DNA of 64,000 bases, taken from assembly GCA_903876795.1 (NCBI GenBank), contig CAIRBK010000060.1, positions 1 to 64,000 of the forward strand, read 5' to 3'. This DNA comes from an uncultured Verrucomicrobiota bacterium. GTDB lineage: Bacteria; Verrucomicrobiota; Verrucomicrobiia; Opitutales; Opitutaceae. Of the stretch, positions 41,607-57,522 are shown in pieces (within the stretch, counting starts at the first letter, position 1; each line of letters opens with the position of its first letter). Made by a program: the position numbers and the translations under genes. Below the pieces are notes generated by a model. The model was given only the letters and a program-made list of their open reading frames with translations, searched no databases and was not told the origin of the DNA.

Positions 41607-42689
41607 ATGCCTCCGCTCGCCTCCCCAGTCTCCCTCGAAAACGCCAGCATCCTCGTCACCGGGGGCACCGGCTCCTTCGGCAAGGCCTTTGTCAAAACCG
41701 TCCTCGAGCGCTACCCCAACATCCGCCGTCTCGTCGTCTTCTCCCGCGACGAGCTCAAGCAGTTCGAGATGTCCCAGCAGTTCAACGGGCGCGAGTATCC
41801 GGCCATCCGTTACTTCATCGGCGACATCCGCGACGAGAAACGCCTGCGCCGCGCCCTCGAGGGCATCGACATCGTTGTCCACGCCGCCGCCCTCAAACAG
41901 GTGCCCGCCGCCGAATACAACCCGTTCGAGTGCATCAAGACCAACGTCCTCGGCGCCCAAAACCTCATCGAGGCCGCCCTCGACTCCGGCGTGCGCCGCG
42001 TCGTCGCCCTCTCCACCGACAAGGCCGCCGCCCCCATCAACCTCTACGGCGCCACCAAGCTCTGCTCCGACAAGCTCTTCGTCGCCGCCAACAACATCCG
42101 CGGCACCCGCGACGTCAGCTTCAGCGTCGTCCGCTACGGCAACGTCATGGGCAGCCGCGGCTCCGTCATCCCGTTCTTCCAGGAAAAACGCAAAACCGGC
42201 GTCCTCCCCATCACCGATCCCGAGATGACCCGCTTCAACATCACCCTCGACGAGGCCGTCGCCATGGTGCTCTGGAGCATCGAAAACGCCTGGGGCGGCG
42301 AGATCATCGTTCCCAAGATCCCCTCCTACCGCATCACCGATCTGGCCCGCGCCATCGGCCCCGATTGCGACTACCCGGTCGTCGGCATCCGCCCCGGGGA
42401 AAAACTCCACGAGGAGATGATCACCGGCAGCGACAGCCATCACACCGCCGACCTGGGCCGCTACTACGCCATCCTCCCCATGGGCTCCGGCTACACGCCC
42501 GCCGAATACTGCGAGGCCCACGACGCCCGCATGGTCCCCGTCGGCTTCTGCTACAACAGCGGCACCAACCCCGACTTCCTCTCCACCGAACAGCTCCGCG
42601 GCCTCCTGGGCATCCGGGAGCCCTCCGATGCCGGCGTCTCCGTGCTCCCCCGCGACTGGCGCGGCGCGCCGGCCCTGGCCGCCTCCTGA
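41607..42689 (+). CDS. pseB: UDP-GlcNAc 4,6-dehydratase (inverting), PseB type
   Basis: The first step of pseudaminic acid synthesis: UDP-GlcNAc is dehydrated and inverted at C5. The 360-residue extended SDR has the NAD(P) motif 'TGGTGSFGKAF', the conserved 'HAAALKQVPAAEYNPFE' and the catalytic set 'STDKAAAPINLYGATK' (Asp, Lys, Tyr). Length and motifs are as expected for PseB/FlaA1, although the related legionaminic-type dehydratases are similar. It lies 38 bases after the GT41-like gene and 13 before pseC. Confidence 0.9.
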   Translation: MPPLASPVSLENASILVTGGTGSFGKAFVKTVLERYPNIRRLVVFSRDELKQFEMSQQFNGREYPAIRYFIGDIRDEKRLRRALEGIDIVVHAAALKQVPAAEYNPFECIKTNVLGAQNLIEAALDSGVRRVVALSTDKAAAPINLYGATKLCSDKLFVAANNIRGTRDVSFSVVRYGNVMGSRGSVIPFFQEKRKTGVLPITDPEMTRFNITLDEAVAMVLWSIENAWGGEIIVPKIPSYRITDLARAIGPDCDYPVVGIRPGEKLHEEMITGSDSHHTADLGRYYAILPMGSGYTPAEYCEAHDARMVPVGFCYNSGTNPDFLSTEQLRGLLGIREPSDAGVSVLPRDWRGAPALAAS

Positions 42690-42702: not shown

Positions 42703-43899
42703 ATGATCCCCTACGGCCGCCAGACGATCACCGCCGACGACATCGCCGCCGTCACCGCCGTCCTGCGCTCGGATTTCCTCACCCAGGGGCCGGCCGTCGA
42801 GGCCTTCGAGCGGAAATTCGCCGAACGCGTCGGCGCCCGCCACGCCGTCGCCGTCAACAACGCCACCGCCGCGCTCCACCTCGCCCTGCGTGTCGCCGGC
42901 GTGGGCCCGGGCGACCGCGTCGTCACCTCGCCGATCACCTTCGTGGCCTCGGCCAACGCCGCCGCCTACGTCGGCGCCACCCCCGACTTCGCCGACATCG
43001 ATCCGGTTAGCCACACGCTCTCCCCCGCCGCCCTAGCCGCCGGCTGGCGCGCCGACACCCGCGCGGTCGTCTCCGTGGACTACGCCGGCCAGGCCGCCGA
43101 CCTGCCGGCCATCGCCGCGTACGCCCGCGCCCGCGGGGCCGTCGTCATCGACGACGCCTGTCATGCCGTCGGCGGCTCGTTCCACTCCGGCGGCCGCCCG
43201 TGGAGCCTCGGCGGCAACCCCTGGGCCGACCTCACCACCTTCAGTTTCCACCCGGTGAAGACCCTGACCACCGGCGAAGGCGGCATGTTGGTCACCGACC
43301 GCGACGACTGGGCCGCGCTCGCCCGCACGCTCCGCTCCCACGGCATTGTTCGTAATACGAACAATTTCACCCCGGCCTCCGACGGTTGCCCGCTGCTCGC
43401 CGAGCGCGGGCCGTGGTTTTACGAGATGCAGGAGCTCGGGCACAATTACCGCATCACCGACATGCAGTGCGCCCTGGGGCTTTCCCAGCTGGGCCGCCTC
43501 GACGCCTGCCTGCGCCGCCGCCGCGAGATCGTCGCCGCCTACAACGCCGCCTTCGCCGGACTGCCCTGGCTGCAGACCCCCGCGCTTCGCGACCCGGCCG
43601 ACGCCGCGACCACCTCGTGGCACCTCTACACCGTGCAGATCGACTTCGCCGCGCTGGGCAAGACGCGCACCGAGGCCATGGCCGCCCTGCGCGACGCCGG
43701 CGTGGGCTCGCAAGTGCTCTACATCCCCGTGCACCTCCAGCCCTGGTATCGCCGCAACTATGGCTACGCCCAGGGCAAGTGCCCCGCAGCCGAGGCGTTT
43801 TACACCCGCACCCTCAGCCTCCCCTTGTTTCCGGCGATGACCGACGCCGACGTCGACCGCGTGGTGGTGGCGGTCCGAAACCTGTTCTCCCCATCATGA
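42703..43899 (+). CDS. pseC: UDP-4-amino-4,6-dideoxy-sugar aminotransferase, PseC type
   Basis: The second step: PLP-dependent amination at C4 of the PseB product. 398 residues from 42703 ('MIPYGRQTITADDI', the usual opening). The DegT/DnrJ/EryC1 fold shows 'VAVNNATAALHLAL', 'VVIDDACHAVGG' and the PLP lysine K186 in 'SFHPVKTLTTGEGG'. Its stop overlaps the methyltransferase start by four bases. Confidence 0.92.
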   Translation: MIPYGRQTITADDIAAVTAVLRSDFLTQGPAVEAFERKFAERVGARHAVAVNNATAALHLALRVAGVGPGDRVVTSPITFVASANAAAYVGATPDFADIDPVSHTLSPAALAAGWRADTRAVVSVDYAGQAADLPAIAAYARARGAVVIDDACHAVGGSFHSGGRPWSLGGNPWADLTTFSFHPVKTLTTGEGGMLVTDRDDWAALARTLRSHGIVRNTNNFTPASDGCPLLAERGPWFYEMQELGHNYRITDMQCALGLSQLGRLDACLRRRREIVAAYNAAFAGLPWLQTPALRDPADAATTSWHLYTVQIDFAALGKTRTEAMAALRDAGVGSQVLYIPVHLQPWYRRNYGYAQGKCPAAEAFYTRTLSLPLFPAMTDADVDRVVVAVRNLFSPS

Positions 43900-44579
43900 A
43901 AACCCAGAGAGAAATTTTTCTCCAAGGCGAAGCCGACTGCTGGGTCGCCCGCAATCGCCGGACCCTCTCCGCCTACCGTGTCGAGGACGATCCGGTGGCG
44001 CGCCATCTCCGCCCGTTTCTTTGCTCCGGCCAGTTCCTGGCCGAGGTGGGCTGCGCCACGGGTGGTCGCATCGCCGCGCTCGCCGGCCTGGCCGGCGGCC
44101 GCGCCGCCGGCATCGATCCCTCGCAGGCTGCGGTCGCCGAGGCGCGCCTCCTTCACCCAGACGCCGACTTCCAGGCGGGCACCGCCGACGACCTGCCTTG
44201 GGAAAACGCCAGCGTGGACGTGCTGATCTACGGCTTCTGCCTTTACCTGTGCGACCGCTCCGAATTGTTCCGCATCGCCGCGGAAGGCGACCGCGTTTTG
44301 CGCGACGGCGGGCTGGTCGCGGTGCTCGATTTTTGCCCTCCGTTTCCCTACCGCAACGCCTACTCCCACCGGGAGGGTGTCTTCAGTTACAAACTGCAGC
44401 ACGCCGCCCTCTGGTCGTGGAATCCCCACTACATCGAGATCTCGCGGCAAATCCATGACCACTCGCGCCCCCGCGACCCCGGCGCGCACGGAGTCTCGCC
44501 AGACGAACGCATCGGCGTGGTCGTCCTTAAAAAACAAACCGCCCACGCGTATCCCTTGCGCCAACACTATGGAGACTGA
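43896..44579 (+). CDS. SAM-dependent methyltransferase in the nonulosonic acid operon
   Basis: 227 residues from the ATG overlapping the pseC stop. Class I methyltransferase: motif I 'LAEVGCATGGRIAAL', 'GIDPSQAAVAEARL', 'DLPWENASVDVLIYG' and 'LRDGGLVAVLDF'. Methyltransferases of this type occur in several flagellin-glycan clusters and may O- or N-methylate the sugar; the site cannot be predicted. It overlaps the next gene by 11 bases, showing tight translational coupling. Confidence 0.85.
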   Translation: MKTQREIFLQGEADCWVARNRRTLSAYRVEDDPVARHLRPFLCSGQFLAEVGCATGGRIAALAGLAGGRAAGIDPSQAAVAEARLLHPDADFQAGTADDLPWENASVDVLIYGFCLYLCDRSELFRIAAEGDRVLRDGGLVAVLDFCPPFPYRNAYSHREGVFSYKLQHAALWSWNPHYIEISRQIHDHSRPRDPGAHGVSPDERIGVVVLKKQTAHAYPLRQHYGD

Positions 44580-45492
44580 CGTTCCTGGTCTTGCTCGGGC
44601 CCGTTTCGCTCTGGGCACCGTCCAGCTCGGCCTCCCCTACGGCGTGGCCAACCGCACCGGCCGCCCCGACGACGAGGCGGGCTGCGGCCTGGTGGCCGCC
44701 GCCCATGCCTGCGGAGTCTCGTGGTTCGACACTGCGGCCGCCTACGGTCGCAGCGAGCGGGTGCTCGGGCAGGCGTTCCGCCGGCTCGGTCTCGCGGACG
44801 AGGCACGGGTTGTCAGCAAGGGCGGCGGATTTGCCGCGCCGGGGGGATCGGTGACCGCCTGCGTCCAGACTTCGCTGCGGGCGCTGGGCATCCCCCGCCT
44901 GGAGGCGTGGCTTTTGCACGATGAGAGGGAGCTCGACGGCTGGGATGGTCGCGCTCGTGCTGACGCCGCCGCCCTGGCCTCCGAGAATCAGGTCGGGGTG
45001 TTCGGTCTTTCCGCCTACCAACCGGCAGCGGCGCTGAGCGCGCTCGAGGAGCTCGACTTTGGCGCGCTCCAATTTCCAGCCTCGCCTTTCGACAGGCGCT
45101 TTGTGCGCGGCGATACCGGCGAACGCATTCTCGGCTCGGGCGCGCGGCTCTTTGTGCGCAGCGTTTATTTGCAAGGTCTCGGTCTCATGGACCCGGAGCA
45201 GGTGCCCGCCCATATCCGGCATGGACGCGAGGCGGCGCGGGCGTTGGCCGATTTCTGCGGGGCGCACGGCTTGGAGCGCGATCATTTCTGCGTGCAGTAT
45301 GTGCTGCAACGCACCGCCCGGTCCGAGGCGCGCCTGGTGATCGGACTCGAGACGCCCGCCCAACTGGCCCGCAACGCCGCCCTGTTTTCCGCCACATCGC
45401 TGCCCGCCGCCCTCCTCGACGAGTGGGATGATCGCTGGCCCGACGACATCGAGGACCTCGTGCTGCCTTACCGCTGGACCAATCCCGCCTGA
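44569..45492 (+). CDS. Aldo/keto reductase in the nonulosonic acid operon
   Basis: 307 residues from 44569. The AKR fold shows 'FALGTVQLGLPYGVANR' at the start, the catalytic Asp/Tyr in 'GVSWFDTAAAYGRSERVLG', a Lys in 'RVVSKGGGF', and the HDxxEL-type 'WLLHDEREL'. NADPH-dependent reductases of this subgroup are frequent in nonulosonic acid and related sugar clusters, but their step there is unclear. It is one base from the next gene. Confidence 0.85.
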   Translation: METDVPGLARARFALGTVQLGLPYGVANRTGRPDDEAGCGLVAAAHACGVSWFDTAAAYGRSERVLGQAFRRLGLADEARVVSKGGGFAAPGGSVTACVQTSLRALGIPRLEAWLLHDERELDGWDGRARADAAALASENQVGVFGLSAYQPAAALSALEELDFGALQFPASPFDRRFVRGDTGERILGSGARLFVRSVYLQGLGLMDPEQVPAHIRHGREAARALADFCGAHGLERDHFCVQYVLQRTARSEARLVIGLETPAQLARNAALFSATSLPAALLDEWDDRWPDDIEDLVLPYRWTNPA

Positions 45493-45493
45493 C

Positions 45494-47533
45494 ATGAAAT
45501 CCCCCAAGACCATCGCCATCATCCAGGCCCGCACCGGTTCGACCCGCTTTCCCGGCAAGGTCCTCAAACCCCTCGCCGGCGGCCATTCGTTGATCGGTTT
45601 CCTGCTGCGCCGCCTGGCGGCCTGCCCCGCCCTCGACGCACTGGTCGTGGCCACCACCGACCGCCCGGGAGACGACGCGCTCGCCGCCCATGTGGAGAGC
45701 CTCGGCCATCTGGTGTTTCGCGGCAGCGAGTCCGACGTGTTGGACCGGTATTATCAGGCCGCGCGCGTCTTCGCGCCCGACATCGTCGTGCGCATCACCG
45801 GGGATTGCCCGCTGATCGACCCCGGCCTGGTCGCCCAAGTGGTCGCCGCCGCCGGCGAACCAGGCGTGGCCTACGCCTCCAACATCCGCCCTCCCACCTA
45901 TCCCGACGGCCTCGACGTGGAAGCCTTCACCTTTGCCGCCCTGGAAGAGGCCTGGCGCGAGGCGCGCGATCCGTTTGAACGCGAGCACGTCACCCCCTAC
46001 CTGCGCGCTCCGGGCCGATGCAAACAGGTCAACCTCGCGCACGACACCGACGAATCCGCCCGCCGCTGGACCGTGGACGAATCCGCCGATTACGACGTCG
46101 TCCGCGGCGTGGTCGCCCATTTCCGCGGCCGCGTCGATTTCGGCTGGCGCGAAGTGCTCGCGCTCGCCAACGAGCAACCGGCTCTTTTCGCCATGAACCA
46201 GGCCACCATCCGCAACGAAGGCGCCGATCTCTGCACCGGCCAGAAACTCTGGAAACGCGCCAAGCGCGTCATCCCCGGCGGCAACATGCTGCTTTCCAAG
46301 CGCGCCGAGATGTTCCTGCCCGGCCGCTGGCCCGCCTATTTCAGCCGCGCCAAGGACTGCCGCGTGTGGGACCTCGACGGCCGCGAGCTGCTCGACATGT
46401 GCATCATGGGCATCGGCACCAACACGCTCGGTTACGGGCATCCCGAGGTGGACGCCGCCGTGGCCGAGACCGTCGCCAAGGGCAACATGTCCACCTTCAA
46501 CTGCCCCGAGGAGGTGCTCCTGGCCGAGAAACTCGTGGAACTTCACCCGTGGGCCGGCATGGTGCGCCTGGCCCGCACCGGAGGCGAGGCCAACGCCATC
46601 GCCGTGCGCATCGCCCGCGCGGCCTCGGGCCGCGACGACATCGCCTTCTGCGGCTATCACGGCTGGCACGACTGGTATCTCGCCGCCAACCTCGCCGGCG
46701 GCGGCAATCTCGCCGGCCATCTTTTGCCCGGCCTCGAACCCAGGGGCGTGCCTCAAGACCTCGCCGGCACCGTCCATCCCTTCGCCTACAACGACCTCGC
46801 CGCCCTTGAAACCATCGTCAACCAACACCCCGTCGGCGTCATCGTCATGGAGGTCGTGCGCAACTTCGGCCCGCAGGACGGCTTCCTCGAAAAGGTCCGC
46901 GACCTGGCCACGCGCAAGGGCATCGTGCTCATGTTCGACGAATGCACCTCCGGTTTCCGCCAGACCTTTGGCGGCCTCCACAAGCAGTACGGAGTCGAGC
47001 CCGACATCGCCATGTTCGGCAAGGCCCTGGGCAACGGTTACGCCATCACCGCCGTCGTCGGGCGTCGCGAGGTGATGGAGCACGCGCAGGAGACGTTTAT
47101 CAGCAGCACGTTCTGGACGGAGCGCATCGGCCCGGCGGCCGCGTTGAAAACCCTCGAGGTCATGGAGCGCCTGCGCTCCTGGGAAACCATCACCGCGATC
47201 GGCCAAACCGTGGTCGCACGCTGGCACGAGCTCGCCGCGCGCCACGCGCTCGCGATCCAGACCGGCGGCCTGCCCGCGCTCGCCACGCTGGCCTTCCTCG
47301 GCCCCAACGCGCTCGCCTACAAAACGCTCCTGACCCAGGAGATGCTCAAGCAGGGCATCCTCGCGGCCAACTCCCTCTACGCCTGCATCGCGCACACCCC
47401 GGAGGTGCTCGACCGCTACTTCGCCGCACTCGATCCGGTCTTCGCGCTCATTCGCCAATGCGAGGACGGTCGCGACGTGGCCGGCCTGCTTGAGGTCCCC
47501 GTCTGCCAGAGCGGCTTTAAACGTCTCAACTGA
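45494..47533 (+). CDS. Fusion of SpsF-type cytidylyltransferase and class III aminotransferase
   Basis: 679 residues. Residues 1-~235 are a nucleotidyltransferase of the SpsF family ('IAIIQARTGSTRFPGKVLKPL', of which 'ARTGSTRFPGKVL' is the signature, and 'VVRITGDCPLIDP'). SpsF-type proteins are taken to activate pseudaminic-type sugars to CMP forms. Residues ~250-679 are a glutamate-1-semialdehyde-like aminotransferase, with 'GTNTLGYGHPEVD', 'LMFDECTSGFRQ' and PLP lysine K510 in 'DIAMFGKALGNGY'. Joining the two in one chain is notable. The aminotransferase step is not part of the standard pathway, so it may add a further amino group or act on a side group. Confidence 0.87.
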   Translation: MKSPKTIAIIQARTGSTRFPGKVLKPLAGGHSLIGFLLRRLAACPALDALVVATTDRPGDDALAAHVESLGHLVFRGSESDVLDRYYQAARVFAPDIVVRITGDCPLIDPGLVAQVVAAAGEPGVAYASNIRPPTYPDGLDVEAFTFAALEEAWREARDPFEREHVTPYLRAPGRCKQVNLAHDTDESARRWTVDESADYDVVRGVVAHFRGRVDFGWREVLALANEQPALFAMNQATIRNEGADLCTGQKLWKRAKRVIPGGNMLLSKRAEMFLPGRWPAYFSRAKDCRVWDLDGRELLDMCIMGIGTNTLGYGHPEVDAAVAETVAKGNMSTFNCPEEVLLAEKLVELHPWAGMVRLARTGGEANAIAVRIARAASGRDDIAFCGYHGWHDWYLAANLAGGGNLAGHLLPGLEPRGVPQDLAGTVHPFAYNDLAALETIVNQHPVGVIVMEVVRNFGPQDGFLEKVRDLATRKGIVLMFDECTSGFRQTFGGLHKQYGVEPDIAMFGKALGNGYAITAVVGRREVMEHAQETFISSTFWTERIGPAAALKTLEVMERLRSWETITAIGQTVVARWHELAARHALAIQTGGLPALATLAFLGPNALAYKTLLTQEMLKQGILAANSLYACIAHTPEVLDRYFAALDPVFALIRQCEDGRDVAGLLEVPVCQSGFKRLN

Positions 47534-47542
47534 GTAAACGCC

Positions 47543-49234
47543 ATGTCCGCCACCCCCCTGCTTGTCCGCGCAGACGCCTCCTCAGGGATCGGCACCGGCC
47601 ATGTGATGCGCTGCCTCGCGCTCGCGCAGGCCTGGCGACGCACCGGCGGGCAAGTGCATTTCCTCCACGCCGCCGTCACCCCGGCGCTCGACGAACGCAT
47701 CCGCTCCGAGGGGTTCGAGACCGGCGCCATCACGTTGGCGGCCGGTTCGGTCGAGGACGCCAGGACCACCGTCGCCCGCGCCCGCGCGCTTGGCTGCTCC
47801 TGGATCGTGGCCGACGGCTACGCGTTCGGGGCCGTCTGGCAGCGCGAAATCAAAGCCGCCGGCCTGCGCCTTCTGCTCCTCGATGATTACGGGCACGCCG
47901 AACACTATCACGCCGACGTGGTGCTCAATCAAAACGCCTCCGCCGACGCTACGCTCTATGCCCGGCGCGACCCCGCCACGCGTCTGCTGCTGGGCCCGCG
48001 CTACGCGCTTCTTCGGGAAGAGTTTGTCGCCCGCGCCGCCGCTCCCGACGCCGGGGGCGCCCGCGGCGCACCGGTCAGGGTACTCGTCACCCTCGGCGGC
48101 AGCGATCCCGAGAATGTCACCGGTCTGGTCATCGCCGCGCTCGGCCGGCTCTCCGGCATCGAGGCGACGGTCGTCGTCGGCGGCAGCAATCCCAACCTGG
48201 CCGCCGTGCAGGCCGCCGTCGCCGCGGCCCCCGTTCCGGTGCGGCTTGTCGTCAACTCGCACCACATGCCCGAGCTCATGGCCGGGGCCGACGTGGCCAT
48301 CTCCGCGGCAGGCTCCACCGTGTGGGAACTCGCTTTCATGGGCCTGCCGGCGGCTTTGATCGTCACGGCCGACAACCAGGCCGCCATCGCCGACGCCGTG
48401 GCGCGCGCCGGGGCCGGCCTCCACCTGGGCCGGCACACCGCGCTCAGCGCCGTAGGCCTGGCGCAGGTCCTGGGCCCCTGGCTGGACGGCACGGCCGCCC
48501 GCATCGAGATGAGCGGGCGCGCTCGCCAGCTCGTTGACGGTCGCGGCGCCCGCCGCGTGTGCGCCGCCCTGGCCCCGGGTCTGGCGATCACCCTGCTCAC
48601 CGACGCCGAGTCCTGGATCAACCCCCACCTCGCCGGCCTGAAAACCGGGTTTGAACAGGCCGGGCATCGGGTGCGCTGGATCCACGATCCCCTGCAAATC
48701 GAGGAGGGCGACGTCGCGTTTTTCCTTTCCCTCGGCCGCATCGTGCCGGAGGCGCTGCTCCGCCGCCACGCGCACAATCTCGTCGTGCATGAAAGCGCCC
48801 TGCCGCGCGGTCGCGGCTGGTCTCCGCTCACCTGGCAGATCCTCGAAGGGCAAAACGAGATCCCCGTTTCCCTGATCGAGGCCGCCGCCGGCGTGGACAC
48901 CGGCGATATTCATGCCCGGGAGACGTTGCGTTTTTCCGGCCATGAATGCGTCGCCGAGCTGCGCGCCGCCCAGGCCGCCGCCACCTGCTCCCTGTGCCGC
49001 GGGTTTATCGCGGATTATCCTTTCAACGCCGCCTCCTCTCGTCCGCAGACCGGAACCCCCGGCCACTATCCGCGCCGTCGCCCCGCCGACAGCCGTCTCG
49101 ATCCCGACAAGACGCTTCGCGACCAGTTCAACCTCCTGCGCGTGTGCGATCCCGAGCGCTACCCGGCCTTCATGGAGATCGACGGTCGCCGCTACGAAGT
49201 GCGCGTCACCCCCGTGAGCCCATCCCCGTTGTGA
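47543..49234 (+). CDS. pseG: Fusion of PseG-type UDP-sugar hydrolase and formyltransferase-like domain
   Basis: 563 residues. The N-terminal ~350 match PseG/SpsG, which removes UDP from the acylated diamino sugar: 'RADASSGIGTGHVMRCLALA', 'VADGYAFG', 'DDYGHAEHYHADVVLNQN', 'SAAGSTVWELAFMGLP'. The C-terminal ~210 resemble formyltransferases of the methionyl-tRNA formyltransferase fold, with the catalytic His416 in 'VVHESALPRGRGWSPL' and Asp452 in 'GVDTGDIH'. It suggests that acyl transfer and UDP removal are physically linked. The stop overlaps the GTG of the next gene. Confidence 0.85.
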   Translation: MSATPLLVRADASSGIGTGHVMRCLALAQAWRRTGGQVHFLHAAVTPALDERIRSEGFETGAITLAAGSVEDARTTVARARALGCSWIVADGYAFGAVWQREIKAAGLRLLLLDDYGHAEHYHADVVLNQNASADATLYARRDPATRLLLGPRYALLREEFVARAAAPDAGGARGAPVRVLVTLGGSDPENVTGLVIAALGRLSGIEATVVVGGSNPNLAAVQAAVAAAPVPVRLVVNSHHMPELMAGADVAISAAGSTVWELAFMGLPAALIVTADNQAAIADAVARAGAGLHLGRHTALSAVGLAQVLGPWLDGTAARIEMSGRARQLVDGRGARRVCAALAPGLAITLLTDAESWINPHLAGLKTGFEQAGHRVRWIHDPLQIEEGDVAFFLSLGRIVPEALLRRHAHNLVVHESALPRGRGWSPLTWQILEGQNEIPVSLIEAAAGVDTGDIHARETLRFSGHECVAELRAAQAAATCSLCRGFIADYPFNAASSRPQTGTPGHYPRRRPADSRLDPDKTLRDQFNLLRVCDPERYPAFMEIDGRRYEVRVTPVSPSPL

Positions 49235-49935
49235 ACACAGCCGAACAACGCTACCTCGTCGCGGGTTGCAAGCCGTGGAACCGCCGCGTGTTTGCCGGGC
49301 GCCTCGCCTCCCTGCCCGGAGAATGGCGCTTTGTTGCCGGTCGCGAGGAACTCACGCCCGGGCTGATCGCCGAATTCCGCCCGCGCTTCGTGTTTTTCCT
49401 GCACTGGTCCTGGATCGTCCCCGAGGCGGTGCTCAACGCCGCCGAGTGCGTGTGCTTTCACATGACCGACGTACCCTACGGGCGCGGCGGCAGCCCGTTG
49501 CAAAACCTGATCGTGCGCGGTCATCGCGAGACCAAGCTCACGGCGCTGCGCATGTGCGCCGAGCTGGACGCCGGCCCGGTCTACCTGAAGTGCCCGCTTT
49601 CGCTTGAAGGCGGCGCCGAGGAGATACTCGTGCGCGCCTCCGAGTTGTCGGCCGACATGATCGCCACCCTCATACGCCTGCGACCCGAGCCCCAGCCGCA
49701 GTCGGGCGAGGTCACGCTTTTCAAACGCCGCCGTCCCGAGGAGAGCCTCATCCCCTCGCTGCCCGGTCTGCCCGCGCTCCACGATTTTATCCGCATGCTC
49801 GACGCCGACGGCTACCCGCGCGCGTTTCTCGAACACGCGGGCTTCCGCTACGAATTCGCCCGCGCCGTGCGCTACGACGGCCGCGTGGTCGCCGATGTCA
49901 CGATCACCGCGTCGCCCTCCGCCCCTTCCTCATGA
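49231..49935 (+). CDS. Second formyltransferase-like protein
   Basis: 234 residues, starting with GTG at 49231 in the GTGA overlap with the PseG fusion gene. The fold shows the formyltransferase core 'FFLHWSWIVPEAVLN', His77 in 'CFHMTDVPYGRGGSPLQNLI' and the Asp in 'ELDAGPVYLK'. Such small formyltransferases occur in bacterial clusters making N-formylated sugars from 10-formyl-THF. It overlaps pseI by four bases. Which nitrogen it acts on is unknown. Confidence 0.82.
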   Translation: MNTAEQRYLVAGCKPWNRRVFAGRLASLPGEWRFVAGREELTPGLIAEFRPRFVFFLHWSWIVPEAVLNAAECVCFHMTDVPYGRGGSPLQNLIVRGHRETKLTALRMCAELDAGPVYLKCPLSLEGGAEEILVRASELSADMIATLIRLRPEPQPQSGEVTLFKRRRPEESLIPSLPGLPALHDFIRMLDADGYPRAFLEHAGFRYEFARAVRYDGRVVADVTITASPSAPSS

Positions 49936-50999
49936 ACACCACCCCGTCCCACCCGTTCGCCATCGCCGGCCGCCCCATCGGCCCCGGACATCCCGTTTAT
50001 GTCATCGCCGAGATGTCGGCCAACCATAACCAGGACTACGAGCAGGCCGCCGCCATCGTGCGCGCCGCCAAAGACGCCGGCGCCGACGCGATCAAGCTCC
50101 AGACCTACACTCCCGACACGATGACGCTCGACCTGCGCACGCCGGTGTTCCAGATCGGGCAAGGCACGATCTGGGAGGGGAAAAACCTTTACGAACTCTA
50201 CGGCGAGGCCTGCACGCCCTGGGACTGGCAGCCGCGACTCAAGCGTCTCGCCGAGTCGCTGGGCCTGCATTGTTTTTCGACGCCGTTTGACGCCAGCTCG
50301 GTGGATTTTCTCGAGGCGATGGACGTGCCGGCGCACAAGATCGCCTCCTTCGAGCTGGTTGACCTGCCGCTGGTCCGCCGTGTGGCCCGCACCGGCAAAC
50401 CGGTGATCATGTCCACCGGCATGGGCTCGCTCGACGAAGTTGTCGAGGCGGTCAACGCCTTCCGCGAGGCCGGCGGCAAACAACTCGCGCTCCTTAAGTG
50501 CACCAGCGCCTACCCGTCCAAACCCGAGGACATGAACCTGCGCACCATCCCCGATCTCGCGACCCGCTTCGGCCTGTGCGCCGGCCTGTCCGACCACACG
50601 CTCGACATCACCGTGCCGGTCGCCGCCGTGGCCCTGGGCGCCTGCATCATCGAGAAACATTTCACGCTCTCCCGCGCCACGCCCGGGCCCGACAGCGCGT
50701 TCTCGCTCGAGCCCGCCGAGTTCCGCGCGATGGTGGACGCCGTGCGCACCACCGAACGGGCGCTGGGTCGGGTCGCCTACGCCATGAGCCCCAAGGAAGA
50801 GGCCAGCCGCATCTTCCGCCGCTCGCTCTTTGTCGTCCGCGACCTCCGGCCCGGCGAGGTGTTCAGCGAGGACAACGTTCGCTGCATCCGGCCCGGTTGC
50901 GGGCTGCTCCCGCGCCACCTGCCCGAGGTGCTCGGCCGCAAGGCCTCGCGCGAGATCGCCCGCGGCACTCCCCTGGACTGGAACCTCGTCGCCTCCTGA
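49932..50999 (+). CDS. pseI: Pseudaminic acid synthase
   Basis: The enzyme condenses the PseG product with phosphoenolpyruvate to give the nine-carbon sugar acid. 355 residues: a NeuB-type TIM barrel with 'YVIAEMSANHNQDYEQA', 'AIKLQTYTPDTMTLD', 'STPFDASSVDFLEAM' and 'GLSDHTLDITVPVAAVALGA', then a C-terminal SAF domain ('RSLFVVRDLRPGEVFSEDNV'). The 'PDTMTLD' segment favours pseudaminic over legionaminic or sialic acid synthases. It overlaps its neighbours on both sides. Confidence 0.93.
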   Translation: MNTTPSHPFAIAGRPIGPGHPVYVIAEMSANHNQDYEQAAAIVRAAKDAGADAIKLQTYTPDTMTLDLRTPVFQIGQGTIWEGKNLYELYGEACTPWDWQPRLKRLAESLGLHCFSTPFDASSVDFLEAMDVPAHKIASFELVDLPLVRRVARTGKPVIMSTGMGSLDEVVEAVNAFREAGGKQLALLKCTSAYPSKPEDMNLRTIPDLATRFGLCAGLSDHTLDITVPVAAVALGACIIEKHFTLSRATPGPDSAFSLEPAEFRAMVDAVRTTERALGRVAYAMSPKEEASRIFRRSLFVVRDLRPGEVFSEDNVRCIRPGCGLLPRHLPEVLGRKASREIARGTPLDWNLVAS

Positions 51000-51688
51000 T
51001 GTCCGCCATGAACGTCCTCGTCATAGCCGCCCACCCCGACGACGAAGTCCTCGGGTGCGGCGGCACCATCGCCCGGTTTGCCTCCGGCGGCGCCGCCGTC
51101 TCGGTGCTTATTCTGGCCAACGGCCTCACCTCGCGCCCCGGTTTCGATCCCGTGCGCGATGCCGGAGCGCTCACGGTCCACCACGAACGCGCCCGCCGCG
51201 CCGGGGCGCTGCTCGGCGCCCAAGAGGTCAACGTCGCCGGCTTCCCCGACCAGCGCATGGACACCCTGCCGCTGCTCGACATCACCCAGGCCATCGAGCG
51301 CGAGATTGCCCGCGTGCGGCCCGCCATCGTCTTCACCCAGCACGGCGGCGACCTCAATCTCGACCATGCCATCACCTTCCGCGCCACGCTCACCGCGACC
51401 CGCCCGATGGCCGGCGGGGTCGTGCGCGAACTCTACAGCTACGAGGTGCCGTCCTCCTCGGAATGGGCGTTCGGCCAGTTCGAGCCCCGGTTCCAGCCCT
51501 CGGTCTTTTTCGACATCTCCGCGCATCTCGACGCCAAAATCGCGGCCATGCAGGTCTATGAAAGCGAGACGCGCGCCTTCCCCCACCCGCGCTCGCCCGA
51601 GGCCCTGCGCGCGCTGGCCCTCCAGCGGGGCGCCGCCGCCGGACTGCCCGCCGCCGAGGCCTTCCACTGCGTGCGCATCCTTCGCTGA
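50999..51688 (+). CDS. PIG-L/LmbE family deacetylase
   Basis: 229 residues. The zinc-binding motif 'AHPDDEVLGCGGTIARF' and the later His in 'GGDLNLDHAITF' are intact. Family members remove N-acetyl groups from amino sugars. In this operon it could deacetylate the nonulosonic acid or its precursor, opening a nitrogen for the formyltransferases. The start overlaps the pseI stop by one base (TGATG). Confidence 0.88.
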   Translation: MSAMNVLVIAAHPDDEVLGCGGTIARFASGGAAVSVLILANGLTSRPGFDPVRDAGALTVHHERARRAGALLGAQEVNVAGFPDQRMDTLPLLDITQAIEREIARVRPAIVFTQHGGDLNLDHAITFRATLTATRPMAGGVVRELYSYEVPSSSEWAFGQFEPRFQPSVFFDISAHLDAKIAAMQVYESETRAFPHPRSPEALRALALQRGAAAGLPAAEAFHCVRILR

Positions 51689-51720: not shown

Positions 51721-54700
51721 ATGAAAAACATACTGTTCTTTTCGCCTTACGCCTTCTGGAAACTGCACGCGCTCTATGAGGTCGGCCTGTTTCACCACTT
51801 CCGGCATCGGGGCTTCAACGCCGACTACATCCACTGCAACGGCCTGTTCGGCGAATGCGACCTTTACTGGGAGGCGACCGTCGGTCCCCGGCCGGCGTGC
51901 GCGTGCCAGGTGTGCCAGCATGAGGTCGGCGCGTTTCTGCAACAATACCACCTGCCGGCCGATCCCCTCGGCGCTTATGCGAGCACCGAGCACAAGCTCG
52001 CCGCCCGCGCCTTCGTGGACGGTCTGGCCGACGCCGACCTGTTGCGCGCCGAATTCATCGGGCACCCGCTGTCCGCCTGGATCAAGTCCTCCGTCCACAC
52101 CCACCTGCGCATCAACGCCTTTGACCTGACCAACGCCCGCCACTGCCGCGCCCTGCGAGACTACCTTTACAACGGCGCGGTCGCCTTGCAGGCCCTGCGC
52201 CGGGTCTTCGCCGAGAAAAAACCCGACGTGCTGGTGCTGTTCAACGGCCGCATGGCCTACCCGCGCATCGCCCTGGAACTCGCGCTCGCCGGCGGCGTGC
52301 GCGTGGTCTGCCACGAGCGCGGCATCTTCCGCGAATCGCTTTCGCTCTGGGAAAACAGCCACTGCCTCTCCCTTGGGGTTTATGAGGAGATGGGCCGCCG
52401 GTGGAATCACGTCCCGCTCACCTCCGCCGAGGTCGCCGCGGTCGCCAAGTGGCTCGCCGACCGCGCCAAGGGCAAGAACCTCAACTGGCGCGCCTACAGC
52501 GAGCAGGGCTCGCTCGGCGGCCTGGGCGATTTCCTGCGCGTCCACGCCGGCAAGAAAATCGCCGCCCTGCTCACCAGCAGCACCGACGAGATCATCGCCT
52601 GCGACGACTACCACTGCGTCTTTGGCAGCCAGCAGGACTGGATCGACCGCACCGTCGCCGAGTTCGCCACCTTGTCCGACGCGGTGCTGGTCATCCGCGT
52701 CCACCCCAACTCCGGCAGCAAAAAATCCACCGGCCGGAACCTGGACGAGCTCGCCTACTACAACGCACTGGGCGCCCGCCTGCCGGCCAACGTCTTTCTG
52801 GTCATGCCCGAAGACGCGGTCAGCACCTACGCCCTCATGGAGGGCTGCGACCTGGGTCTTGTCTTCGGCACCACCGCCGCCCTCGAACTCGCCGGCCGCG
52901 GCAAGCCCGTCCTGGCCGGCGCGCGCTGCCCGTGGACTTTTAACGACGCCATCCGCCAGGTCACCGACCCGGACGCCTATCGCGCACTGCTCGTCGCCGC
53001 GCTCGCCGCGCCGCTTTCCCCTGCGGCCAGGCGGGAGCAGATGCGCGCCGCCTACCGCTTCATCCACGCCTACCTTTACCGCTGGCACATTCCTTTCCCC
53101 CTCGTGGCCATGCCCGACCCGCACACCGGCGAATTGCTCGCCAAGACCCTCGACGATTTCCGCCCCGGCCGCCACGCCTGCCTCGACCACGCCGCCGCCA
53201 TCGTGCTCGGCGAACGCCCGCTTGTTCCCGTCCCTGAAGGCCGCTCCGAATCCGACGCGGAGGCCGAGACCGCCGCCTTGGAACGCTACGAACGCCAGGG
53301 CGGCCACCGCGCCGGCCGCGCCGAGGGCGTGGTCATCAGCGCCGTCGTCACCTGTTACAACTACGCCGATTTCCTGCGTCCTTGCGTCGAAAGCATCGTC
53401 ATGCAGACGCGGCCCGTGGACGAGATCATCATCGTCGACGACGGCAGCACCGACGCCAGCGCCGCCGTCGCCGGGCGCTGCATCGCCGAGTTCCCCCAGG
53501 CCGCCATCCGCCTTCTCCGCCAGCCCAACTCCGGCCAGCCCGCGCTCGCCCGCAACGCCGGCATCCAGATCGCCCGGGGCGACTTTATCCTCCCCGTCGA
53601 TGCCGACGACCGCCTCGACCCCGGCTACATCGCCGCCTGCTGCGAGGCCATCGAGGACGACCCCTCGGCCGAGCTCGTTTACGCCGACCCCGTTTACGTC
53701 AAAAACGGCCAGGCGCGCCTCGTGCCCGCCGGCGCGTTTTCCGTGGCCAACATGAAGCGCGGCAACCAGCTCGTCTACTGCTCGCTCTACCGCCGCGAAC
53801 TCTGGCGCCGCATCGGCGGCTACCGCGACAACATCCGCGGCTACGAAGACTGGGACTTCTGGGTCGCCGCCGCCCTCCTCGGCGCCAAGGCCGTCCACCT
53901 CGCCCGCCCCGGCCTGCTCTACAACGAGAAGGACTCCGGCGTGTTTTCCCAGACGACCGGCCTGCACCACCAGCGCGTCGCCCGCCTCACCTTGAACAAT
54001 CCCGGCGCCTTCACCCCCGCCGAACTCCAGGCCGCCGCCCGGCTCCTGCGCTCCAAGGGTCTCGACTCCCCCGACGTGCCCAATCCCGCCGCCGCCACCC
54101 GTTTCGTCCAGGAAATCGCCGCGCTCCAAGCCTGGCGCGACTCCCCCGCCGCCTGGCCCTCGCCCGAATCCCCCGAGGCGCGCACCCGCCATCTCGCCGT
54201 GCTCGCCCTCGCCTGGAAACACCGCGACTGGACCCTCGGGGCCGCCGTCGCCCGCCGTTTGGTCGAAGCGTTCGGGGCCGATCCCTTTTTGTCCGGCATC
54301 GAGGCCGCCTGCTGGAAACGCGCGATGAATCCCGCGCGCGCCGCCGCCGCCCAGGCCGAAGCGATGGCCTGGCAACCCGCCTCCGCGACCGGCGCGGATT
54401 GGCCCGCCCTTGTGCGCGCCGAGGTCGCCACCCCCGCCCATCCCGGCCTGCTGGCGTGGGCCCTCCTCCGCCTGGCGCGCGCCGACCTCGCCGCCGTCGT
54501 CGCTCGCACCTGGCGCAAGCGCGGCATCGAGCCGGTCATGGCCGACCTCATGGATGCCATGATCGCCGCGGAGGCCACCGCCGCGCCCGCCGAAGCTTCC
54601 GCACCCGCCGAAGACGACGAGGCGGCGTTCACCGCCGCCGACGTGTCGGCCGTGGCCGAACTCGCCGCCGCCGCCCGCGCGCCCGGGGCGGACGACGACC

Positions 54701-56232
54701 TGCGCGGGCAGGTGCGCGCCCTCGGCGACGAATGCGCCCGCCGCATCACCGCCGCCTCGCCTGGGTCCCTGCGCGGCGTGTTCGCCACCAATTTCGGCTC
54801 CATCTGGGAAGCCGTGGCCGGCGCCGGCGCGGGCATCTCCGTGCCCCCCGCACCCGTGCGCTTCCAAACCGAGGGCGACGACCTGTGGTGCCGCGCCGTC
54901 GCGCTCGCCTGGTTGCAAGGCGGCGATTCCCGGGCCGGTTTTGCCTGGGAAAAGGCACCGCTCTGGCTCTGGGAGGCGGTACAGTCCGCCAGCGCCGGCA
55001 CCGTGCGCACGCGCGTCGAGGACGCCGCGGACGCGCCCTCCGCCGGCACCCCCGCCGGCCTGGCCGGAAAACGCATCTTGCTCTACACCGACGACGCCGG
55101 CCAGGGCGGCGCGGCGCACTACAATCACCACCTCAGCCTGGCCCTGCGCGCGGCCGGGGCCGAGGTCGTGGTCGCCCAGCCCAAGTCCGAAACCCCCATG
55201 CTCCAGGAGCAGGCGCGGGCCGGCATCCGCCATGTCTGGACGGCCTATGACGCGGCGGGGATATTCCCAAGGTCGATGACGGACCAGGCCGACGCCGAGC
55301 ACATCTTTCGCGCGGCGCGCCCGGATCTGATTTACTTCAGCGATTCCTGCGCGGTTTCACACCTTGCCGCCAAACGCCACGCCCTCCAGTCGGCCCGGCC
55401 CTACATGGTCATCTGCCACTCCGAGGCGGCCTACCTCGCCGAGCGTTTCAAGGCCTGCCTGCCCGAAGTCGAGCGCCTGCTCGCCGGCGCGGCCGAGGTG
55501 CTCGCCGTCTCCGAAAGCAGCCGGGGCGTGCTCCAGCGCCACTTCGGCCTGGCGCAGGGTCGCGGCCGCGTGATCTACAACGGCCGCCCGGCGCACTACT
55601 TCGCTCCGGTGGCGGCCGATGACCGCCGCCGCATCCGCCGCCAATGGGGCGTCTCCGACGACACGCTGGTCGCGTTCACCGCCGCCCGCTTCGACAGCGG
55701 CAAGGGCTACCCGTTTCAAATCGAGGCCATGAAACACCTCCGGGCCGCCGGCGTGCTCGACCGCGTGCGTTTCGTCTGGGTGGGCGACGGCGAGTGGCGC
55801 GCACGCATCGAGGCGATGGTCGCCGAGGAAAAGTTGTCCTCCCACGTGCGTTTCCTCGGCTACCGCTGGGATGTGCCGGAGCTGCTCGCGGCGGCCGACA
55901 CCTTCATCCTCCCGTCGCTGCACGAGGCCATGCCGCTGAGCATCATCGAGGCGATGGCGCGCGGCCTGCCGGTCATCGCGACGGCCGTCGGCGGCATACC
56001 CGAGGAGCTGGGCGACACCGGACAACTCCTGCCCGACCCCAACCGCGACGCCGCCCAGACCTCCCGCGTGCTCGCGCAAACCCTGGCCGCCTGGAGCACC
56101 GACCTGCCCGCCGTCCACGAACGCGGTCGCCTCGCGCACACCCGCGCCGCCAGTCTCTTCCGCCAGGAACGCATGCTGGACGACACCCTGCTCGCCATCA
56201 CCGAGACCCTGCGGTCGATCACCGCAGGCTGA
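51721..56232 (+). CDS. Giant three-module glycosyltransferase
   Basis: 1503 residues, cytoplasmic by appearance. Module 1 (~1-500) resembles capsule polysaccharide-type GT-B proteins ('VLVIRVHPNSGSKKS', 'LGLVFGTTAALELAGRGKPV'). Module 2 (~537-780) is a GT2/GT-A domain ('VISAVVTCYNYADFLRPC', 'IIVDDGST', DxD-like 'PVDADDRLDP'). A ~300-residue Ala-rich helical linker follows. Module 3 (~1115-1503) is a GT4 domain with the EX7E motif in 'LHEAMPLSIIEAM'. It likely adds several sugars to the flagellar or surface glycan. It starts 32 bases after the deacetylase gene and is the last gene of the operon. Confidence 0.85.
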   Translation: MKNILFFSPYAFWKLHALYEVGLFHHFRHRGFNADYIHCNGLFGECDLYWEATVGPRPACACQVCQHEVGAFLQQYHLPADPLGAYASTEHKLAARAFVDGLADADLLRAEFIGHPLSAWIKSSVHTHLRINAFDLTNARHCRALRDYLYNGAVALQALRRVFAEKKPDVLVLFNGRMAYPRIALELALAGGVRVVCHERGIFRESLSLWENSHCLSLGVYEEMGRRWNHVPLTSAEVAAVAKWLADRAKGKNLNWRAYSEQGSLGGLGDFLRVHAGKKIAALLTSSTDEIIACDDYHCVFGSQQDWIDRTVAEFATLSDAVLVIRVHPNSGSKKSTGRNLDELAYYNALGARLPANVFLVMPEDAVSTYALMEGCDLGLVFGTTAALELAGRGKPVLAGARCPWTFNDAIRQVTDPDAYRALLVAALAAPLSPAARREQMRAAYRFIHAYLYRWHIPFPLVAMPDPHTGELLAKTLDDFRPGRHACLDHAAAIVLGERPLVPVPEGRSESDAEAETAALERYERQGGHRAGRAEGVVISAVVTCYNYADFLRPCVESIVMQTRPVDEIIIVDDGSTDASAAVAGRCIAEFPQAAIRLLRQPNSGQPALARNAGIQIARGDFILPVDADDRLDPGYIAACCEAIEDDPSAELVYADPVYVKNGQARLVPAGAFSVANMKRGNQLVYCSLYRRELWRRIGGYRDNIRGYEDWDFWVAAALLGAKAVHLARPGLLYNEKDSGVFSQTTGLHHQRVARLTLNNPGAFTPAELQAAARLLRSKGLDSPDVPNPAAATRFVQEIAALQAWRDSPAAWPSPESPEARTRHLAVLALAWKHRDWTLGAAVARRLVEAFGADPFLSGIEAACWKRAMNPARAAAAQAEAMAWQPASATGADWPALVRAEVATPAHPGLLAWALLRLARADLAAVVARTWRKRGIEPVMADLMDAMIAAEATAAPAEASAPAEDDEAAFTAADVSAVAELAAAARAPGADDDLRGQVRALGDECARRITAASPGSLRGVFATNFGSIWEAVAGAGAGISVPPAPVRFQTEGDDLWCRAVALAWLQGGDSRAGFAWEKAPLWLWEAVQSASAGTVRTRVEDAADAPSAGTPAGLAGKRILLYTDDAGQGGAAHYNHHLSLALRAAGAEVVVAQPKSETPMLQEQARAGIRHVWTAYDAAGIFPRSMTDQADAEHIFRAARPDLIYFSDSCAVSHLAAKRHALQSARPYMVICHSEAAYLAERFKACLPEVERLLAGAAEVLAVSESSRGVLQRHFGLAQGRGRVIYNGRPAHYFAPVAADDRRRIRRQWGVSDDTLVAFTAARFDSGKGYPFQIEAMKHLRAAGVLDRVRFVWVGDGEWRARIEAMVAEEKLSSHVRFLGYRWDVPELLAAADTFILPSLHEAMPLSIIEAMARGLPVIATAVGGIPEELGDTGQLLPDPNRDAAQTSRVLAQTLAAWSTDLPAVHERGRLAHTRAASLFRQERMLDDTLLAITETLRSITAG

Positions 56233-56364
56233 CGGCTCGCGTCACGATCCAAACACCCGCGCAAAACAACATCCCGCCGCCCGTTCGGAGCACGGGGCGG
56301 GAAACGCGCCCATTGGTTTTTCCGCTTGGCCGGACGCGCTCAAACAGGCCAGCCTTGCGGGGCA

Positions 56365-57522
56365 ATGCGAAGCATCGAGCTATTCACGGGGGCGGGAGGA
56401 CTGGCGCTTGGCTTGGAACGCGCGGGCTTCGAAACGATCGCCCTGTTCGAGCGGGACGCCGACGCCTGCGCCACCTTGAAGCACAACCGCCCAGCATGGA
56501 ATATACGCCGGAGCGACGTCTGCGAAGTGGACTTTTCCAGCCTTGGCCCCGTGGACTTGGTCGCCGGGGGGCCGCCCTGCCAGCCCTTTTCCATGGGAGG
56601 CAAGGCCCGCGGACACCAAGACCATCGCGACATGTTCCCGCAAGCGGTGCGTGCCGTCAGAGAACTTAGGCCGGCCGCCTTCATGTTTGAAAATGTCCGC
56701 GGCTTGCTGCGCGACGCATTCGCAAATTACGTCGAGTTCATCCGCCTCCAACTCACGTATCCGGATTTTCCCGTTTCCGACAACGTGGACTGGGACGCGA
56801 ACCTTCGCCGCCTTCAGCGTCATCACAGCTCCACGCGTTCGCTTTCCGAACTTTCCTACAAGGTCACGATTAACCTGGCCGACGCGGCCGACTATGGCGT
56901 GCCGCAGCGCCGGCACCGCGTTTTCTTCGTCGGGTTCAGGCGGGATATTGATTCAGGATGGTCATTTCCCTCGCCAACGCACGACCGCTCGCTGCTTCTG
57001 CGCTCGCAACGGGTGACCGGAAATTATTGGCGAGAACACGGGATTGCCCCCCAGGCGGCATCGCAGGGCGGCCACGCCAAGTCTCAAGCCTGGCAAACGG
57101 CCGAGTTGCCACTGGGACTGAATCGCTGGCGCACGGTGCGCGACGCGTTGTGCGATCTGCCGGACCCCCGGATCGGGAGGCGTTTCCACGATCACGTTTT
57201 CCAGCCGGGCGCGCGCGCCTATCCTGGACATACCGGCAGCCCCTTGGACGAGCCATCGAAGGCTCTCAAGGCCGGCGATCACGGGGTACCCGGGGGCGAG
57301 AACATGATGCGCTTCCCCGACGAAAGCGTCCGCTATTTCACCCTGAGGGAGGCGGCGCGCATCCAAACATTCCCGGACGATTATCGTTTTATTTCCTCCT
57401 GGAGCGAGAGCATGCGCCAGCTTGGCAATGCCGTTCCCGTGGAGTTGGCGCGGGTCGTCGCCCAATCGATCGCCGCCAGGCTGCGGCCCATCCCGAGTTC
57501 AAAATCCCATGCCAAAGCCTGA
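56365..57522 (+). CDS. DNA (cytosine-5) methyltransferase of a type II restriction system
   Basis: 385 residues from 56365, where motif I begins right after the start ('SIELFTGAGGLALGLERAG'). The catalytic PC motif is 'GGPPCQPFS', motif VI 'FMFENVRG', motif VIII 'QRRHRVFFVGF' and motifs IX-X '..LREAARIQTFPDDY...QLGNAVP'. It methylates cytosine in the recognition site to protect host DNA. The nuclease gene overlaps its end by 14 bases. The partner's family (Eco29kI) suggests CCGCGG as the site, but this is inference. Confidence 0.93.
   Translation: MRSIELFTGAGGLALGLERAGFETIALFERDADACATLKHNRPAWNIRRSDVCEVDFSSLGPVDLVAGGPPCQPFSMGGKARGHQDHRDMFPQAVRAVRELRPAAFMFENVRGLLRDAFANYVEFIRLQLTYPDFPVSDNVDWDANLRRLQRHHSSTRSLSELSYKVTINLADAADYGVPQRRHRVFFVGFRRDIDSGWSFPSPTHDRSLLLRSQRVTGNYWREHGIAPQAASQGGHAKSQAWQTAELPLGLNRWRTVRDALCDLPDPRIGRRFHDHVFQPGARAYPGHTGSPLDEPSKALKAGDHGVPGGENMMRFPDESVRYFTLREAARIQTFPDDYRFISSWSESMRQLGNAVPVELARVVAQSIAARLRPIPSSKSHAKA

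What the first reader, a model, noticed from the sequence alone, without database searches (positions are those of the whole stretch)
47543..51688. Pseudaminic-type pathway apparently rebuilt for N-formylation
PseB, PseC, PseG and PseI are all present but no PseH N-acetyltransferase. Instead there is a formyltransferase domain fused to PseG (His416/Asp452 kept), a second formyltransferase and a PIG-L deacetylase. The simplest reading: the C4 amine of the PseC product is formylated before UDP removal, and an acetyl group elsewhere may be removed and replaced. N-formyl nonulosonic acids are known in some bacterial glycans, but a PseG-formyltransferase fusion would be a distinctive route.
Basis: partly seen in the sequence, partly recalled or inferred. 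Interest (0 to 1): 0.65.

Follow-up and report, generated by a model that had tools for sequence, protein, structure and literature searches.

The report
Pseudaminic acid pathway with formyl swaps
A bacterium makes a sialic-acid-like sugar, probably for its flagella, with an enzyme set in which the usual acetyl-adding domain is replaced by what looks like a formyl-adding one, next to a second gene pair that probably swaps another acetyl group for formyl.

Summary

The fusion is a variant of a known design: among 28 PseI loci of the class, PseH shares PseG's reading frame in 14. FT1 and PseH tend to exclude each other (FT1 alone 5, PseH alone 16, both 1, neither 6; p=0.022). FT1 most likely replaces PseH at the C4 amine (C7 of pseudaminic acid), as PseJ is known to do, but FT1 is not PseJ.

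PIG-L accompanies FT2 in 20 of 21 loci from at least four phyla, whatever the C4 enzyme. That points to the other nitrogen (C5): deacetylate, then formylate. Predicted product: 5,7-di-N-formyl-pseudaminic acid.

Unexpected: FT1 (0/14) and FT2 (0/21) lack the catalytic Asn of N-x-H, as does PDB 1zgh, an FT2 member labelled Met-tRNA formyltransferase. Formyl transfer is inferred, not shown.

Verdict: new variant of a known kind; chemistry untested.

The parts
41607..42689 (+). PseB, UDP-GlcNAc 4,6-dehydratase (inverting)
   Evidence: TIGR03589 over cut-off
42703..43899 (+). PseC, C4 aminotransferase (start chosen at the ATG behind the PseB stop)
   Evidence: TIGR03588 over cut-off; sequence
43896..44579 (+). 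SAM methyltransferase, target unknown
   Evidence: PF08241/PF13649
44569..45492 (+). Aldo/keto reductase, KidO-like, role unknown
   Evidence: PF00248, NF011432 below cut-off
45494..47533 (+). PseF-like cytidylyltransferase fused to class-III (GSA-like) aminotransferase
   Evidence: PF02348 + PF00202
47543..49234 (+). PseG (residues 1-345) fused to formyltransferase-like domain FT1 (346-563): His416, Asp452, Val414 in place of Asn
49231..49935 (+). FT2, second formyltransferase-like protein (PF21553 C-terminal domain; PDB 1zgh family)
49932..50999 (+). PseI, pseudaminic acid synthase
   Evidence: TIGR03586 over cut-off
50999..51688 (+). PIG-L / LmbE-type de-N-acetylase with HPDDE and HGGDLNLDH motifs
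   Evidence: PF02585

Best explanation
A pseudaminic acid (Pse) pathway in which both nitrogens are formylated. PseB and PseC make UDP-4-amino-4,6-dideoxy-AltNAc (known chemistry). FT1, in the seat of PseH at the C-terminus of PseG, formylates the C4 amine from 10-formyl-THF, and the attached PseG domain then removes UDP (inferred; C4-N becomes C7-N of Pse). Independently, PIG-L removes the acetyl from the other nitrogen (C2-N, later C5-N) and FT2 formylates the freed amine (inferred; at which intermediate is unknown). PseI and the PseF domain finish to a CMP-sugar, predicted CMP-Pse5Fo7Fo, possibly for flagellin. Shown here: gene content, no recognisable PseH, FT1 in PseH's seat, pairing of FT2 with PIG-L, occurrence of that pair with different C4 enzymes. 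Not shown: any reaction or product.
For: Best PseH match in the genome 21 bits, partial, against 36-52 and 29-58 bits for cluster-borne ones elsewhere. In 28 PseI loci found without reference to FT1 or PseH: FT1 alone 5, PseH alone 16, both 1 (L065), neither 6; Fisher one-sided p 0.022. PseH shares PseG's reading frame in 14 of those loci and FT1 in 4 (window, L066, L127, L129): the same seat. L015 has about 86 residues between PseG and FT1 with no Pfam match, and L014 is PseG-GNAT-FT1 in one frame, possible steps of the swap. FT2 x PIG-L in the same sample: 3 both, 0 FT2 only, 2 PIG-L only, 23 neither, p 0.003; over 21 FT2 loci 20 have PIG-L, same strand in 20 of 20, 11 at 20 bases or less. 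Partner enzymes of these 21: FT1 7, PseH 9, FT1 plus PseH 1, PseJ-like 1, PseJ-like plus GNAT 1, none seen 2, so FT2/PIG-L do not depend on the C4 enzyme. All 25 PIG-L proteins examined keep HxDDE. [quoted passage not shown]
Against: FT1 (0 of 14) and FT2 (0 of 21) lack the Asn that PMC4388273 calls crucial in FMT, ArnA and GART. FT1 and PseH do coexist: L065 has a PseH-like GNAT of 80.5 bits about 240 bases from FT1; L014 has GNAT and FT1 in one protein with FT2 interrupted; the genome of L016 has a 73.6-bit PseH-like GNAT on another contig and that of L018 two of 42-43 bits elsewhere (no other Pse genes within the 1.5 kb held around those I checked). L127, whose FT1 is nearest to the window's, has PseG-FT1 and PIG-L but no FT2, and an ATP-grasp gene. 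L069 has FT2 without PIG-L. Which nitrogen PIG-L acts on is inferred only. Loci are related by descent, so the p-values are indicative.
Confidence: 0.48

Rival explanations
1. FT1 replaces PseH as above, but PIG-L and FT2 act on something else: the glycan, a second sugar, or FT2 adds no formyl and PIG-L leaves a free amine.
For: PIG-L occurs without FT2 in L012, L013, L116 and L127, and with only an FT2 remnant in L014; mono-N-acetyl Pse with a free amine is proposed for S. oneidensis flagellin (PMC3765264, passages read).
Against: FT2 and PIG-L are adjacent (11) or separated only by PseI (7) in 18 of 20 loci and lie with Pse genes.
Confidence: 0.2
2. FT1 and FT2 are not amine formyltransferases: lacking Asn they hydrolyse 10-formyl-THF, as the FDH hydrolase domain does, or transfer another one-carbon unit.
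For: 0 of 14 FT1 and 0 of 21 FT2 have Asn in N-x-H against 4 of 4 PseJ-like and 3 of 3 other own-genome family members (sequences); FDH has Ile104 there (PMC4388273, passages); the FT2 model aligns to FDH hydrolase at Z 19.9, tied with Met-tRNA formyltransferases.
Against: Operon position, tendency to exclude PseH, and conserved His and Asp; a bare hydrolase would leave the C4 amine unacylated.
Confidence: 0.13
3. Positions reversed: FT2 formylates C4-N, FT1 the amine freed by PIG-L.
For: L014 has GNAT, FT1 and PIG-L with FT2 interrupted; L065 has FT1 and a PseH-like GNAT.
Against: FT2 coexists with PseH in 10 of 21 loci, FT1 with PseH in 1 of 28 PseI loci; FT1 sits in PseH's seat on PseG; L121 and L129 have FT1 without PIG-L.
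Confidence: 0.12
4. Both enzymes decorate another sugar and C4-N is acetylated by an unrecognised GNAT.
For: The genome has at least five GNATs of PF13302, two in tandem on C49 (not examined further); the PseH family search missed one cluster-borne GNAT elsewhere (G200); the genome of L016 has both FT1 and a distant PseH-like GNAT.
Against: Best in G000 is 21 bits, on another contig; FT1 is fused to PseG.
Confidence: 0.07

Closest known systems
PseG-PseH chimera (Aeromonas caviae Sch3N; PMC7874193, passages read)
   Same: UDP-sugar hydrolase and the C4-amine acyltransferase in one chain
   Different: Acyltransferase is a formyltransferase-fold domain, not a GNAT
PseJ, PDB 6ci2/6ci4 (Anoxybacillus origin and 7-formamido function recalled)
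   Same: Formyltransferase-fold enzyme of a Pse pathway, taking PseH's role (recalled)
   Different: PseJ has N-L-H (alignment); FT1 has V-V-H, phmmer E 0.2 to PseJ (FT1 profile E 2.9e-7 against 3e-19 for 1zgh), and groups with FT2 (96/94 support)
PDB 1zgh, 'methionyl-tRNA formyltransferase' of Clostridium thermocellum
   Same: FT2 is its family: profile E 7.7e-95, model Z 30.9, 1.4 A over 224 residues; V-F-H
   Different: Its label looks like a misannotation; its gene neighbourhood was not seen
N-formyl-legionaminic acid cluster of Halorubrum sp. PV6 (PMC6137143, passages read)
   Same: Nonulosonic acid cluster with a putative formyltransferase; 5-N-formyl product
   Different: Leg pathway; the words deacetylase and LmbE do not occur in its text
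Pse islands of Aeromonas group I with deacetylase, keto reductase, class III aminotransferase, methyltransferase (PMC7874193, passages read)
   Same: Same kinds of accessory genes
   Different: The word formyl does not occur in its text

Membership tests
Pseudaminic acid pathway | PseB, PseC, PseG, PseI over NCBIfam cut-offs | tested here: met
Pseudaminic acid pathway | PseH N-acetyltransferase | tested here: not met
   best 21 bits, partial; the search can miss divergent members
PseG | Same fold and GxGH motif as C. jejuni PseG | tested here: met
   3hbn Z 30.8, 2.6 A, 275 residues, though MurG 3s2u ties at 31.1; GTGHVMR
Sugar N-formyltransferase (FT1) | Formyl_trans_N domain with His and Asp | tested here: met
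   PF00551 36.9 bits, cut-off 26.1; His416, Asp452
Sugar N-formyltransferase (FT1, FT2) | Asn of N-x-H | tested here: not met
   0/14 and 0/21
Sugar N-formyltransferase (FT1, FT2) | Formyl transfer to an amino sugar | not testable with these tools
   needs enzymology
PseJ | Closest to 6ci4 and N-x-H kept | tested here: not met
1zgh family (FT2) | Full-length profile and fold match | tested here: met
PIG-L de-N-acetylase | PF02585 and HxDDE plus HxxDxNxDH | tested here: met
   window protein: (over all 25: HxDDE in 25, the second pattern in 17)
10-formyl-THF hydrolase (FDH N-terminal domain) | Asn replaced by hydrophobic residue, His/Asp kept | tested here: met
   a resemblance only: in FT2 the residue is Cys in some, hydrolysis is untested, and 1zgh is far closer

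The most novel reading that the evidence does not exclude
FT1 and FT2 are an uncharacterised Asn-less branch of folate-dependent formyltransferases, spread over at least four phyla, working with a PIG-L deacetylase as an acetyl-to-formyl exchange module that gives 5-N-formyl and 5,7-di-N-formyl pseudaminic acids by a catalytic arrangement unlike ArnA, Fmt or PseJ.
Probability: 0.38. Interest if true: 0.62.

Novelty: new variant of a known kind. Interest (0 to 1): 0.46.

Why it matters
It predicts a precise, checkable sugar (Pse with formyl at one or both nitrogens) from gene content, suggests a rule for reading Pse clusters (PseH, PseJ or FT1 for C7; PIG-L+FT2 for C5), offers a likely role for an orphan crystal structure (1zgh), and raises a clean enzymology question: can a folate formyltransferase work without its catalytic Asn?

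Tried and rejected
Considered and rejected: that the fusion is an annotation or frame artefact (PseG and FT1 share a frame also in L066, L071, L127, L129, and, with extra sequence between, L014 and L015). That FT1 is PseJ. That FT2 is the house-keeping Met-tRNA formyltransferase: the genome has three other family members, all with N-x-H. A Maf glycosyltransferase: PF01973 gave only 13 bits, cut-off 34.6.

Led nowhere: plasmid collection for FT1 fusions (one joined two-piece match over 86% of the query, H1; not opened); paper searches for PseJ with formyltransferase (0 papers) and PseG with formyltransferase (1 paper). In my ten paper searches I saw no PseG-formyltransferase fusion and no PIG-L/formyltransferase pair, but only listings and some passages were looked at and the library lacks most subscription journals.

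Mended on re-check: I had first counted L065 as lacking PseH because its GNATs scored 38-43 bits with my own model (table 0 both, 6, 16, 6; p 0.0025). The NCBIfam PseH search of these genomes gives 80.5 bits there, so the table is 1, 5, 16, 6 and p 0.022. One search also shows PseH-like GNATs for two of the six 'neither' genomes: G196 (46.0 bits, about 1.3 kb beyond the stretch L119) and G091 (86.9 bits, another contig); they are left as 'neither' in the table. For this and for the distant GNATs I lowered the main confidence from 0.52 to 0.48, the novel case from 0.40 to 0.38, and raised two rivals by 0.02.

Rows left out: L009 and L019 (short contigs) were not annotated; six of nine matches (L046-L051: weak, FT1 of L014, or in L050 a 47-residue frame matching only the FT2 C-terminus) were not pursued; L028 and L030 are the genomes of L065 and L066 and were counted once. 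My PseH model includes sequences from L027, L070, L075, L079, so their scores are not independent; by NCBIfam L070 is over the PseH cut-off (149.8) and L079 under it (80.2 against 93.1). First tree held one outgroup read on the wrong strand; repeated correctly.
Full report
CHECK. The window lies in G000 (3.57 Mb, 103 contigs, 98% complete, 2.16% contamination). Its operon runs PseB, PseC, methyltransferase, aldo/keto reductase, PseF-aminotransferase fusion, PseG-FT1 fusion, FT2, PseI, PIG-L, with overlapping stops and starts at PseC/MT (ATGA), PseG-FT1/FT2 (GTGA), FT2/PseI (ATGA) and PseI/PIG-L (TGATG). A PseH search of the whole genome gives one partial match of 21 bits. PseH-like GNATs inside the clusters of L006, L008, L012, L013, L014 and L017 give 36-52 bits in the same search, and 15 of the 16 PseH loci of the class sample 29-58 bits; the sixteenth (L125) was missed, so the search is good but not airtight.

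ANATOMY. AlphaFold gives the fusion a mean pLDDT of 91.0 (pTM 0.70); its first half matches C. jejuni PseG (3hbn, Z 30.8, 2.6 A over 275 residues; MurG 3s2u is tied at 31.1), and Foldseek also lists 1zgh (E 8.2e-10, 212 columns), presumably for the second half. FT2 has pLDDT 93.9 and matches 1zgh at Z 30.9, 1.4 A over 224 residues, 42% identity, far ahead of the next row (20.3); the FT2 profile finds 1zgh at E 7.7e-95. PIG-L has HPDDE and HGGDLNLDH.

FT1 MOSTLY STANDS IN FOR PseH. I took all 28 PseI-positive genomes of 286 in the class, fetched the 25 new neighbourhoods and annotated them with HMMs built here. After correction, FT1 alone occurs in 5, PseH alone in 16, both in 1 (L065), neither in 6 (p 0.022). 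PseH lies in PseG's reading frame in 14 loci; FT1 lies in it in the window, L066, L127 and L129, and next to PseG in L121. So the fusion is the ordinary PseG-acyltransferase layout with the acyltransferase exchanged. PseG-PseH chimeras are in print (PMC7874193, passages). L014 holds PseG, GNAT and FT1 in one frame, and L015 an undefined stretch between PseG and FT1: possible intermediates. In L074, where PseG-PseH is intact, FT1 is interrupted by an in-frame stop. Against this: L065 has both; the genome of L016 has a 73.6-bit PseH-like GNAT on another contig, and that of L018 two of 42-43 bits. In the genomes of the other FT1 loci of the class sample the best PseH matches are nothing (G133), 28.9 (G188), 26.2 (G266) and 35.7 bits (G167), each covering only positions 45 or 59 onward.

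FT2 AND PIG-L ARE A SECOND MODULE. FT2 was found in 3 of 286 genomes of the class, 3 of 297 in the phylum of L014 (strong matches; 9 at E<=1e-15), 6 of 386 in the phylum of L006, 7 of 345 in the order of L016, and in L018 and a Synechococcus plasmid (L027). With neighbourhoods read, PIG-L is present in 20 of 21 FT2 loci, on the same strand in all 20, 11 times within 20 bases. The C4 enzyme of these loci varies: FT1 7, PseH 9, FT1 plus PseH 1, PseJ-like 1, PseJ-like plus GNAT 1, none seen 2. In the PseI sample FT2 and PIG-L associate (3, 0, 2, 23; p 0.003). A pair that ignores which enzyme serves C4-N most simply serves the other nitrogen. Origins include Pseudomonadota, Ignavibacteriota, Cyanobacteriota and the phylum of L014 (Thermodesulfobacteriota). 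L068 and L069 carry a synthase that reaches neither the PseI nor the NeuB cut-off, so the module may also serve another nonulosonic acid.

THE MISSING ASPARAGINE. In canonical 10-formyl-THF enzymes Asn-x-His...Asp is catalytic; PMC4388273 (passages) calls the Asn crucial in FMT, ArnA and GART and notes Ile104 instead in the FDH hydrolase. FT1 has Val or Ile (0 of 14 Asn), FT2 Cys, Ile, Val or Leu (0 of 21), PseJ-like proteins Asn in 4 of 4; the three other family members of this genome keep it too (sequences printed), and 1zgh has Val (alignment). FT1 and FT2 fall together, apart from PseJ-like and the house-keeping enzymes (96/94). Either these enzymes stabilise the formyl group otherwise, or they do something else. 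This is a main reason why I give the full mechanism only 0.48.

CONTEXT. The window also encodes MotA/MotB, a sigma-70 family factor and, just upstream of PseB, a TPR/GT41 glycosyltransferase (39274-41568), which fits flagellin glycosylation; no Maf was found. The target is inference.

KNOWN AGAINST NEW. Known: 7-N-formyl-Pse (PMC3210612, passages), PseJ (PDB titles; its published function is recalled, no paper on it was found), PseG-PseH chimeras and deacetylases in Pse islands (PMC7874193, passages), 5-N-formyl-Leg (PMC6137143, passages), formyltransferases in flagellin islands (PMC5109656, PMC4875605, passages). New as far as my searches show: FT1 as a second, Asn-less PseH replacement carried on PseG; the FT2/PIG-L pair; 1zgh's likely role. 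Chemistry is untested throughout.

Noticed in passing
window 45494-47533 and 44569-45492: PseF domain fused to a GSA-like class-III aminotransferase, preceded by an aldo/keto reductase; similar genes recur in L077, L078, L118, L129 and, as reductase and aminotransferase, in Aeromonas islands (PMC7874193). Role unknown.
   Followed up: partly
PDB 1zgh: Deposited as Met-tRNA formyltransferase of Clostridium thermocellum, but belongs to the FT2 family and lacks the catalytic Asn.
   Followed up: partly
L127:5505-6524: A same-family relative with PseG-FT1 and PIG-L has no FT2 but an ATP-grasp gene; the freed amine may get another acyl group there.
   Followed up: no
L074:8484-9167: FT1 split by an in-frame stop beside an intact PseG-PseH fusion.
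   Followed up: partly
L014:9123-9200: Remnant of an FT2 start, ending in a stop, followed by a methyltransferase gene.
   Followed up: no
window 51721-56232: 1503-residue protein with a GT2 and a GT1/GT4 glycosyltransferase domain right behind PIG-L.
   Followed up: no
window 56326-57522: C-5 cytosine DNA methylase directly behind the glycosylation genes.
   Followed up: no
G000:C49:9481-10541: Two GNATs in tandem, one with the genome's best but weak PseH score.
   Followed up: no
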